From Solirubrobacterales bacterium (lineage in GTDB: Bacteria > Actinomycetota > Thermoleophilia > Solirubrobacterales > Solirubrobacteraceae): DNA of 64,000 bases. Numbering within the stretch: the stretch's first letter is position 1; every line of letters starts with the position of its first letter. Position numbers and translations under genes: made by a program. The notes beneath the pieces are model-generated. The model was not told the DNA's origin and made no database searches. It was given only the letters and a program-made list of their open reading frames with translations. The stretch lies in contig DAIDJO010000095.1 in assembly GCA_027451345.1 (NCBI GenBank), forward strand, positions 62,001 to 126,000, read 5' to 3'. Of this stretch, positions 41,849-43,715 are shown in pieces.

Positions 41849-42235
41849 TTGAGCGACCACATCGAGCGCACGCAGATCCAGACCACCGCCAGCCCCGCGC
41901 CGGGCGGCAGCTATTCACAGGCAATCCGGTGGGGGAACCTGCTCTTCCTCTCCGGGCAGACCCCGCGGGATCTCAACCGCACCCCTGTCGCCGGGCCGTT
42001 CCGCGCGCAGGCCCTCCGTGTGTACGAGAACCTCCGCACCCTCGCCGAGGTGGGTGGTGCGCGACTGGAGGACGCCCTCCAGGTGACGGTCTACCTCGCC
42101 GACATGGCCGACGCGGCCGAGGCCGATGCCGTGTTCGCCGAGGTGTTCCCGGAGCCACGGCCGGCGCGCACCACCGTCGGGGCACAGATCCCCGTCTCGA
42201 TCGAGGTGGACGCGGTGTTCGGCGTGCGGGAGTGA
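41849..42235 (+). CDS. ridA: RidA/YjgF family imine deaminase
   Basis: A 128-aa RidA-family protein: SPAPGGSYSQAIRWGNLLFLSGQ, VYENLRTLAEVGGARLEDALQVTVYL and ARTTVGAQIPVSIEVDAV, including the catalytic Arg in PARTTVG. RidA trimers hydrolyse reactive enamines/imines, such as those released by PLP enzymes and D-amino acid dehydrogenases. That fits the DadA-like dehydrogenase and aminotransferase in the array. The TTG start has AAGGAG 6 nt upstream. Its promoter shares an operator type with the array, suggesting co-control. Confidence 0.92.
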   Translation: MSDHIERTQIQTTASPAPGGSYSQAIRWGNLLFLSGQTPRDLNRTPVAGPFRAQALRVYENLRTLAEVGGARLEDALQVTVYLADMADAAEADAVFAEVFPEPRPARTTVGAQIPVSIEVDAVFGVRE

Positions 42236-42293
42236 GGCGGCGCCGGACCCGCCCAGACTGAGGGCAGGCGGCATCCTGGCCGACGGGCCGTCC

Positions 42294-42350
42294 GGCTCGG
42301 CCGGGTGCCCGAGGCTCGGCCGGGTGCCCGCGGCTCGGCCGGGTGCCCGC
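42294..42350. repeat. Three 19-bp tandem repeats
   Basis: Three head-to-tail copies of a 19-mer (GGCTCGGCCGGGTGCCCG plus A or C) at 42294, 42313 and 42332; copies differ only in the last base. Confidence 0.9.
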
Positions 42351-42354
42351 GGCC

Positions 42355-42478
42355 GGCGCCTGTCCAGCGTGGCAATGTTCCTCCGCTCGGGGGCGAATTG
42401 CCACCAGATGCATGCTTTCGAGCGCATTTGTGGCAACGTGGCAGAGCGGCACACAGGTTGCCACGCTCGACAGGTGCC
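42355..42478. repeat. 124-bp nested inverted-repeat element (MITE-like or structured RNA)
   Basis: Ends are 22-bp inverted repeats matching at 19 positions (42355-42376 versus 42457-42478), sharing AGCGTGGCAA. Inside, each end also pairs locally: GTGGCAAT (42369-42376) with ATTGCCAC (42397-42404), and GTGGCAAC (42430-42437) with GTTGCCAC (42457-42464), spacers 20 and 19 bp. The centre holds ATGCATGC and GCGCAT. It could fold either as two hairpins or one long stem. I see no transposase or obvious target duplication. Confidence 0.7.
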
Positions 42479-42674: not shown

Positions 42675-43715
42675 TCAGTCCCCGCCCGCGTTGAGGTCAT
42701 ACACCCGGCTGGCGATCACCAGGTCCTGCCACGCCATTCCGACACCCGTGTAGATCGCCGGTCGGCCGGCTGTCGCGGAGAAGCGTCCCGTGACCAGCTC
42801 GGCCAGGTTGGTGAGCCGCTGACCGGTGCTCTCCTCCCTCCATGCCTCGAGCGGTCGGGCCTGTAGCAGATTGCCGGATTCGCGCAGCGCCGCGCCCCGG
42901 GCCTCGACCACGACGTCCGAGCGTCGCACGAGCTCGGCGGGAAGCTCGTGACGCTGCGGGCCGTGTGCCCCGACGGCGCACACGACCGCGTTGGGACTGA
43001 CCGCCTCGGCCGCGAAGAGCGGCGACGCGGACGAGGTGACGCAGATCACCAGGTCGGCGCTCGCCAGGTCGTCGGTCGGGTCGGCGGCGGCCGGCCTGGT
43101 CGGCGCGCCGGCCGGGGTCGTACGGGCGACTACGGCATCCACCGCGCCGGACCGCCGCCCGACCACCGCAATGTCGCTTGGCCTCAGCACCGCCTGAGCG
43201 CACTGGATATGGCGCTCCGCCTGCGGACCGGTCCCGTACACCACCACCCGAAGCCCGTCCGGCGCCTGACCGTGGTCGGAGGCAGGGCGATCCGCGCCGA
43301 CGGGACCTCGGTCCCGCTTCGCCGCGAGCAGGTGCTGGGCCGCCAGGACGGTCGTCGCGGGGGTGCGCAGCAACGTCAGCTCAGCGGCGTCGAGCATGGC
43401 GAGGGGCGTCAGGTGATCGTTGTCGAAGAGCACGTACACGCCCTGGACAGCGGGATGGCCCGCCGCCGGGTTGTCAGGGGCCAGGGCGACGAGCTTCACG
43501 CCCGATCGAGGCCGACCGACGCTCGGCATGACCAGGAACTCGCGCCCGGGACCGGCGGGCGAGAACAGTCGCGGACCGTCGTCCTCGGGGTCGACCTGGC
43601 CCGATGCCAGCGCGTCGTTCAGCAGTGTCACGGCGGCGCGCAGGTCGAGCAGGCCGGCGATGATGTCGGCGGCCAGAAACGGGAGAGCTCGCGCGCTCGC
43701 GGACTCGGGGGTCAT
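42675..43715 (-). CDS. Ornithine cyclodeaminase/mu-crystallin family protein
   Basis: A 346-aa NAD(P)-binding protein of the OCD/mu-crystallin family: LFDNDHLTPLAMLDAAELTLLRTPATTVLAA, the Rossmann motif VVYGTGPQAERHIQCA and a late GVGMAWQDLVIAS. Members cyclodeaminate ornithine, reduce delta1-pyrroline-2-carboxylate or other ketimines, or act as alanine/lysine dehydrogenases. A pyrroline-carboxylate (ketimine) reductase would link with the 3-hydroxyproline dehydratase-like enzyme at 49.8 kb, whose product is that imine. It lies downstream of the Liv importer in the same orientation. Confidence 0.9.
   Translation of the reverse strand: MTPESASARALPFLAADIIAGLLDLRAAVTLLNDALASGQVDPEDDGPRLFSPAGPGREFLVMPSVGRPRSGVKLVALAPDNPAAGHPAVQGVYVLFDNDHLTPLAMLDAAELTLLRTPATTVLAAQHLLAAKRDRGPVGADRPASDHGQAPDGLRVVVYGTGPQAERHIQCAQAVLRPSDIAVVGRRSGAVDAVVARTTPAGAPTRPAAADPTDDLASADLVICVTSSASPLFAAEAVSPNAVVCAVGAHGPQRHELPAELVRRSDVVVEARGAALRESGNLLQARPLEAWREESTGQRLTNLAELVTGRFSATAGRPAIYTGVGMAWQDLVIASRVYDLNAGGD

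What the first reader, a model, noticed from the sequence alone, without database searches (positions are those of the whole stretch)
42355..42478. 124-bp nested inverted-repeat element between convergent genes
Seen: 22-bp terminal inverted repeats (19/22) whose ends each also form a local hairpin through GTGGCAAY/RTTGCCAC, so two alternative folds exist. It could be a small non-autonomous mobile element, a bidirectional terminator or a structured RNA.
Basis: seen in the sequence. Interest (0 to 1): 0.6.

Follow-up and report, generated by a model that had tools for sequence, protein, structure and literature searches.

The report
Scattered palindromes paired with a nuclease
The 124-bp palindrome is one of a dozen or so scattered copies in an uncultured bacterium, and in this genus each species carries its own version whose sequence matches a copy fused to the front of a resident DNA-cutting gene, which suggests a small mobile element served by a nuclease rather than by a known transposase.

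Summary
The element (42355-42478) consists of four 23-bp arms in alternating orientation, spaced 13/2/13 nt. It is one of 11 places in its own genome, and relatives of the same uncultured Solirubrobacterales genus carry tens more. The architecture is constant, but the arm sequence is species-specific. In six genomes with many copies, one detected copy abuts, in a fixed register, the 5' end of a gene for an AbiEi-like DNA-binding protein fused to a Vsr/EDxHD homing-type nuclease. Of 54 dispersed copies, 47 match their own genome's gene-linked copy better than any other. Two predictions held: nine further paralogs carry the palindrome in the same register, and the G012 gene-linked copy has about 18 dispersed relatives in that single-contig genome. 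The geometry matches the four-repeat operator of the AbiEi homolog Rv2827c. Best reading: REPIN-like dispersed repeats that are cognate sites of a resident AbiEi-nuclease, not of a RAYT transposase. Cognate pairing is well supported. Binding, autoregulation and nuclease-driven copying are inferred: no clean empty site or target duplication was found, and 15 of 15 tested G012/G020 loci are shared. Terminator and structured-RNA readings are disfavoured.

The parts
42355..42478 (.). whole element, full dyad; four alternating arms
   Evidence: R1 95.5 bits, E 9.9e-21 in the window; the window copy was one of the ten that built R1
42357..42379 (+). arm 1 (23 bp, ...GTGGCAATGTT)
   Evidence: read against the arm table
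42380..42392 (.). 13-nt variable loop
   Evidence: loop columns 26-38 of A7
42393..42415 (-). arm 2 (inverted)
42418..42440 (+). arm 3
42441..42453 (.). 13-nt variable loop
42454..42476 (-). arm 4 (inverted)
41849..42235 (+). flanking RidA-like ORF (context only)
   Evidence: the name is recalled, no family search was run on it
42675..43715 (-). flanking ornithine-cyclodeaminase-like ORF (context only)
   Evidence: the name is recalled, no family search was run on it

Best explanation
The element is a dispersed, non-autonomous copy of the cognate DNA site of a resident AbiEi-type DNA-binding protein fused to a Vsr/EDxHD homing-type nuclease (in this genome at G000:C55:8472-9377, minus strand). 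Shown by computation: one copy of the 123-bp, four-arm palindrome overlaps the 5' end of that gene in a fixed register; other copies are scattered, mostly in intergenic DNA; and within each genome the arms of most scattered copies follow the arms of the gene-linked copy. Inferred from homology: the winged-helix domain binds the four 23-bp arms, as Rv2827c binds its four-repeat operator, and so controls its own gene. Inferred, weaker: the nuclease domain nicks or cuts at the bound palindrome, and repair copies the palindrome to new places, so that only copies with arms the resident protein can read are propagated, in the manner of REPINs with RAYTs.
For: Family and architecture: 11 places in the own genome; about 18 dispersed places in single-contig genome G012 and about as many in G020, against 0 in G015 and G025 with the same query. 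Gene link: in 6 of 6 genomes the distance from element end to a conserved protein motif is exactly 26 nt. Prediction test: 15 of 15 paralogs scoring >=320 bits have the dyad in that register (9 of them not used to set it), 2 of 34 lower-scoring ones do; shuffles 0.27 +/- 0.07. Cognate matching: 47 of 54 dispersed copies match the own gene-linked element best among 21. Covariation: 17 gene-linked elements align without gaps at 123 columns, and 31 of 32 pairs have two-sided changes. Protein: model pLDDT 92; AbiEi 6y8q Z 12.9 (rmsd 4.1, 182 aligned), Rv2827c 1zel Z 10.1 (4.7, 189), I-Bth0305I 3r3p Z 13.3 (2.4, 95), Vsr 1cw0 Z 11.0 (2.3, 98); PADLOC AbiEi E 5e-24. Operator geometry of Rv2827c: four 23-bp repeats, 13-bp gap within pairs, 4 bp between pairs (PMC7319586 passages), against 23/13/23/1/23/13/23 here. 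Arms held, loops free: G012 copies differ 23% in stems and 58% in loops.
Against: Movement was not observed. All 15 tested G012/G020 loci are shared; the G008 ortholog of the window locus lacks the element but is not a clean empty site; no target duplication is evident in the flanks printed. Seven of 54 dispersed copies do not match their own genome's gene-linked copy best. Four genomes (G002, G018, G021, G022) have 12 or more model matches but no in-register gene found, and that co-occurrence test is partly circular because R2 was built from the gene-linked copies. No compensatory excess in orthologous copies: 2 seen, 2.6 expected. Binding and cutting are untested.
Confidence: 0.72

Rival explanations
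1. The dispersed copies are stationary binding sites of the AbiEi-nuclease protein with a host role (regulation, nucleoid organisation, or marking self DNA), kept by selection in place rather than mobile.
For: 15 of 15 tested G012/G020 loci shared; stems diverge less than loops even between orthologous copies, 10.7% vs 18.1%, p 0.001; AbiEi proteins are autoregulators.
Against: Placement is mostly not promoter-like (25 tandem, 18 convergent, 8 divergent, 3 overlapping a gene end, 8 at contig ends, of 62); loci are mostly different between distant species; orthologous copies diverge about as much as their flanks (11.7% against 9.5%).
Confidence: 0.2
2. REPIN/RAYT or MITE: the copies are moved by an ordinary Y1 or DDE transposase, and the link to the nuclease gene is incidental.
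For: Overall resemblance to REPINs: inverted doublets, alternative folds, dispersed, several flavours (PMC3116915 passages).
Against: Y1_Tnp: 0 matches in element-bearing G000, G005, G006 and G014 of 28 genomes searched (drafts of 76-88% completeness; G017 and G012 do have matches). The fixed-register link to the nuclease gene in 15 of 15 top paralogs would be a coincidence.
Confidence: 0.05
3. Bidirectional terminator or structured non-coding RNA.
For: Convergent genes and strong folding in the window.
Against: No Rfam match; no excess of G-T over A-C mismatches in paired columns (45 vs 42), as expected if the palindrome is read as DNA; arms follow a trans-acting gene. A terminator effect as a side effect is not excluded.
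Confidence: 0.03

Closest known systems
REPIN / RAYT (REP doublets with a Y1 transposase)
   Same: Short non-autonomous inverted doublets with two alternative folds, dispersed in extragenic DNA, distinct flavours each linked to a single-copy resident enzyme gene
   Different: The enzyme is an AbiEi winged-helix protein fused to a Vsr/EDxHD nuclease, not a Y1 transposase; the gene-linked copy overlaps the 5' reading frame in a fixed register; four arms at 13-nt spacing; no common GTAG/CGTC tag across species
AbiEi / Rv2827c operator (type IV toxin-antitoxin autoregulation)
   Same: Two-domain AbiEi fold; four 23-bp inverted repeats, 13 bp apart within pairs, next to the protein's own gene
   Different: Here a nuclease domain is fused to the protein, I did not look for an adjacent AbiEii toxin, and the operator-like unit is scattered over the chromosome
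EDxHD homing endonucleases (I-Bth0305I) and Vsr-like DUF559 nucleases
   Same: Fold of the C-terminal domain, invariant acidic and histidine residues
   Different: Fused to AbiEi; no intron; associated with scattered palindromes rather than one allelic site

Membership tests
REPIN/RAYT | dispersed extragenic inverted doublet, each half with its own hairpin | tested here: met
REPIN/RAYT | resident Y1 (RAYT) transposase gene linked to the repeats | tested here: not met
   no PF01797 match in G000, G005, G006, G014; drafts are incomplete; G024 was not in that search; G012 and G017 have matches, whose neighbourhood was not examined
REPIN/RAYT | GTAG/GTGG or CGTC tag at the palindrome base | tested here: not met
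   GTGG is present in the G000 arms; arms of G005, G006, G012, G014, G017 and G024 lack it. The tag is partly recalled, partly from the title of PMC3733652 (listing)
AbiEi-type multi-repeat operator | four 23-bp inverted repeats, 13-bp gap within pairs, next to an AbiEi-fold gene | tested here: met
   against PMC7319586 passages; centre gap 1 nt here and 4 there; arm borders were set by me to 23 bp
AbiEi-type multi-repeat operator | binding by the protein and autoregulation | not testable with these tools
   needs EMSA and a reporter
EDxHD/Vsr homing-type nuclease | catalytic-domain fold and conserved residues | tested here: met
   I-Bth0305I Z 13.3, rmsd 2.4 over 95; invariant E207, D234, E245, D247, H252, D259 in 17 of 17
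EDxHD/Vsr homing-type nuclease | DNA cleavage and homing | not testable with these tools
   no biochemical data
MITE | target-site duplication and parent transposon with the same ends | tested here: inconclusive
   no duplication evident on reading the flanks; no systematic scan; a gene with the same element exists, but not with the element at both ends
Rfam RNA family | match to a curated family | tested here: not met
   E up to 1, 1,101 bases

The most novel reading that the evidence does not exclude
A class of mobile palindromes not driven by a transposase: an antitoxin-type repressor captured a homing nuclease domain, so that its own operator became the replicating unit. The nuclease copies operators around the chromosome, and repressor specificity and the whole operator population change together in each lineage.
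Probability: 0.4. Interest if true: 0.92.

Novelty: new variant of a known kind. Interest (0 to 1): 0.8.

Why it matters
Many bacterial palindromic repeat families have no known enzyme. This one has a candidate from a different enzyme class than RAYTs, with about 17 naturally matched protein-site pairs. That makes two open questions directly testable: how a resident protein and a scattered population of sites change specificity together, and whether a homing-type nuclease can propagate a short non-coding palindrome.

Tried and rejected
RAYT/Y1 transposase as the driver was rejected, with the completeness caveat given. A search for an empty site was tried three ways: two G012/G020 loci that looked private turned out to be shared, and the G008 ortholog of the window locus lacks the element but also lacks most of the intergenic DNA. 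An RNA reading was tested by G-T versus A-C counts and gave no support. Compensatory change inside orthologous copies was tested and gave no excess. A promoter test with the pattern TANNNT gave 0 of 17; a second, looser pattern (ATA-N-T type) chosen after seeing the sequences gave 8 of 17 against a shuffled mean of 0.26, so it is only suggestive of a start just upstream of the element. Palindromes or inverted repeats upstream of lower-scoring paralogs (G019:C344, G026:C80, G005:C65, G014:C140, and G018:C95 by fold energy) are out of register and were left out of A7. Relatives outside the fetched set were scanned (28 of the 78 loci, chosen because the match begins near the protein start; 7 of the 28 are known cases): one further case in register (L249) and one a codon off (L253); the rest are near the shuffled range or at other offsets.

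Rows dropped: 62 of the 64 places were fetched with flanks and analysed (G022:C284 and G018:C76 were not); 49 of 50 paralogs were scored for the dyad (G007:C187 has too short an upstream stretch), and the 50 are those I chose from a longer list; G024:C34 (one in-frame TGA) was left out of the protein alignment A8. Genome searches score a capped number of first-look candidates per genome, so copy numbers are lower bounds.

Full report
Observation. The 124-bp element exists as described: 19 of 22 matching end bases and two overlapping fold options, much more stable than shuffles (z -5.7 and -3.9). It lies between two convergent ORFs.

It is a repeat family. A DNA search with the window copy found a 70% full-length relative and a partial one in the own genome; with that relative as query, 8 places besides it appeared. 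A covariance model R1, built from ten copies, gave 11 places in the own genome and matches in 8 of 61 genomes, all in the window's own genus (8 of 28), none in 33 other genomes. Copies within a genome mostly differ by about 20-30% but share the same anatomy.

Species-specific arms. Read side by side, the arms are GTGGCAATCTG-like in G000, GCGCGCAAACTGG in G005, CGACAATCTG in G006, TGCACAAAGCG in G014, GACAAACTGC in G017 and GCAAACTGGC in G024: shared by most copies of a genome, different between genomes. The nested pairing 1-4 and 2-3 is the general one; in G012 outer and inner arms differ, so two side-by-side hairpins would pair poorly there.

The gene link. Clustering the genes around 62 of the 64 places singled out one family: in G000, G005, G006, G014 and G017 (and, on inspection, G024) one copy sits at the start of an AbiEi_4 plus DUF559/MTES_1575 gene. 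The distance from element end to a conserved motif is 26 nt in 6 of 6, and the frame is open through the element. I then predicted that other close paralogs would carry a palindrome in the same register. Of 50 paralogs examined, 49 could be scored: all 15 at >=320 bits have a dyad score of at least 0.50 (mean 0.72; 9 of the 15 were not used to set the register), 2 of 34 lower ones do, and shuffles give 0.27 with standard deviation 0.07. The two weakest (0.50 and 0.52) lie at the 99.9% shuffle quantile of 0.505. An in-frame ATG, GTG or TTG lies within 40 nt upstream of the element, or at its very edge, in 16 of 17, so the ORF probably reads through the 41-codon element; this is inference.

Cognate matching. 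Leaving out 6 gene-linked copies and 2 of G022 (no gene-linked copy known), 47 of 54 dispersed copies score higher against a gene-linked element of their own genome than against any other of 21. The 7 others are G006:C92 (G000-like arms), two copies in G005 and four in G017, perhaps families of other paralogs. A second prediction test used the gene-linked element of the single-contig genome G012: about 18 dispersed places there and 18 in its relative G020 (as merged by me from the table), 0 in single-contig genome G015 and 0 in G025.

Co-occurrence. Model R2, built from the 17 gene-linked elements, was run on 41 genomes: 17 of 25 genus genomes match, 0 of 16 others. All 11 genus genomes with an in-register gene have at least 12 matches (both strands counted); of 14 without, 4 do (G002, G018, G021, G022), 2 have one match, 8 none; Fisher p 5e-4. 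This is partly circular, since R2 was trained on those genomes' gene-linked copies. G008, whose ortholog of the window locus lacks the element, has no top-scoring gene (best E 3.6e-53) and no R1 or R2 match.

Structure and level of action. The 17 gene-linked elements align without gaps at 123 columns, and 31 of 32 predicted pairs have changes on both sides. G-T and A-C mismatches are equally common (45 and 42), which speaks for a DNA palindrome rather than an RNA fold. The predicted protein structure (pLDDT 92) matches AbiEi, Rv2827c, I-Bth0305I and Vsr, and the likely nuclease residues are invariant in 17 of 17. Passages of PMC7319586 report that Rv2827c binds four 23-bp inverted repeats, 13 bp apart within pairs and 4 bp between pairs, upstream of its own gene, and that AbiEi and Rv2827c do not bind each other's sites. 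The element has the same layout, 23/13/23/1/23/13/23, with all six arm pairs well above shuffles (means of 12.0 to 16.5 of 23 against 6.3). That is the strongest argument for how it works.

Mobility. Different species mostly have copies in different places, and loops are nearly randomised among G012 copies (58% different) while stems are held (23%), as expected if only copies with readable arms spread. Against recent movement: 14 of 18 G012 loci, and the one further G020 locus tested, are shared between G012 and G020 (4 not tested), whose flanks are about 90% identical. Orthologous copies differ 10.7% in stems and 18.1% in loops (p 0.001), which could mean some selection in place. So copying by the nuclease is a hypothesis, at about 0.4.

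What is known. PMC3116915 passages describe REPINs and RAYTs, the closest analogue; the Y1 domain was not found in 4 element-bearing draft genomes. PMC3710099 passages name the MTES_1575 Vsr-type REase; PMC12907096 passages describe a DUF559 Vsr-like protein of Caulobacter that causes an SOS response; PMC3943268 passages describe EDxHD homing enzymes. Library searches listed no paper whose title or abstract start ties this nuclease family to palindromic repeats; subscription papers and preprints are not covered.

Verdict. A real repeat family, new as far as these searches show, with a convincing cognate gene; the working mechanism is part homology, part hypothesis.

Noticed in passing
window 42293-42357: 3.5 copies of a 19-bp tandem repeat (CGGCTCGGCCGGGTGCCCG) directly abutting the element; other short GACAGGTGCC-type repeats lie beside the G000:C133 copy (L006 1640-1700).
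   Followed up: partly
L077 3029-3140 (G006:C92): A copy with G000-type arms in another species, near what looks by eye like a transposase remnant (sequence, L005); possible horizontal transfer.
   Followed up: no
L084 3000-3120, L089 2974-3095 (G005); L105, L106, L107, L108 (G017): Second subfamilies with arms unlike the resident gene-linked copy; perhaps served by other paralogs.
   Followed up: no
L166 (G024:C34:41443-42333): A second AbiEi-nuclease gene with a near-perfect upstream palindrome (dyad 0.90) but one in-frame TGA.
   Followed up: no
L068, L074: The gene-linked copy sits beside a 717-aa, glutamine-synthetase-like gene in both G000 and G006 (name recalled; homology), so this locus is probably old.
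   Followed up: partly
L084 3000-3340 (G005:C176): Two elements of different subfamilies about 100 bp apart in one intergenic region.
   Followed up: no
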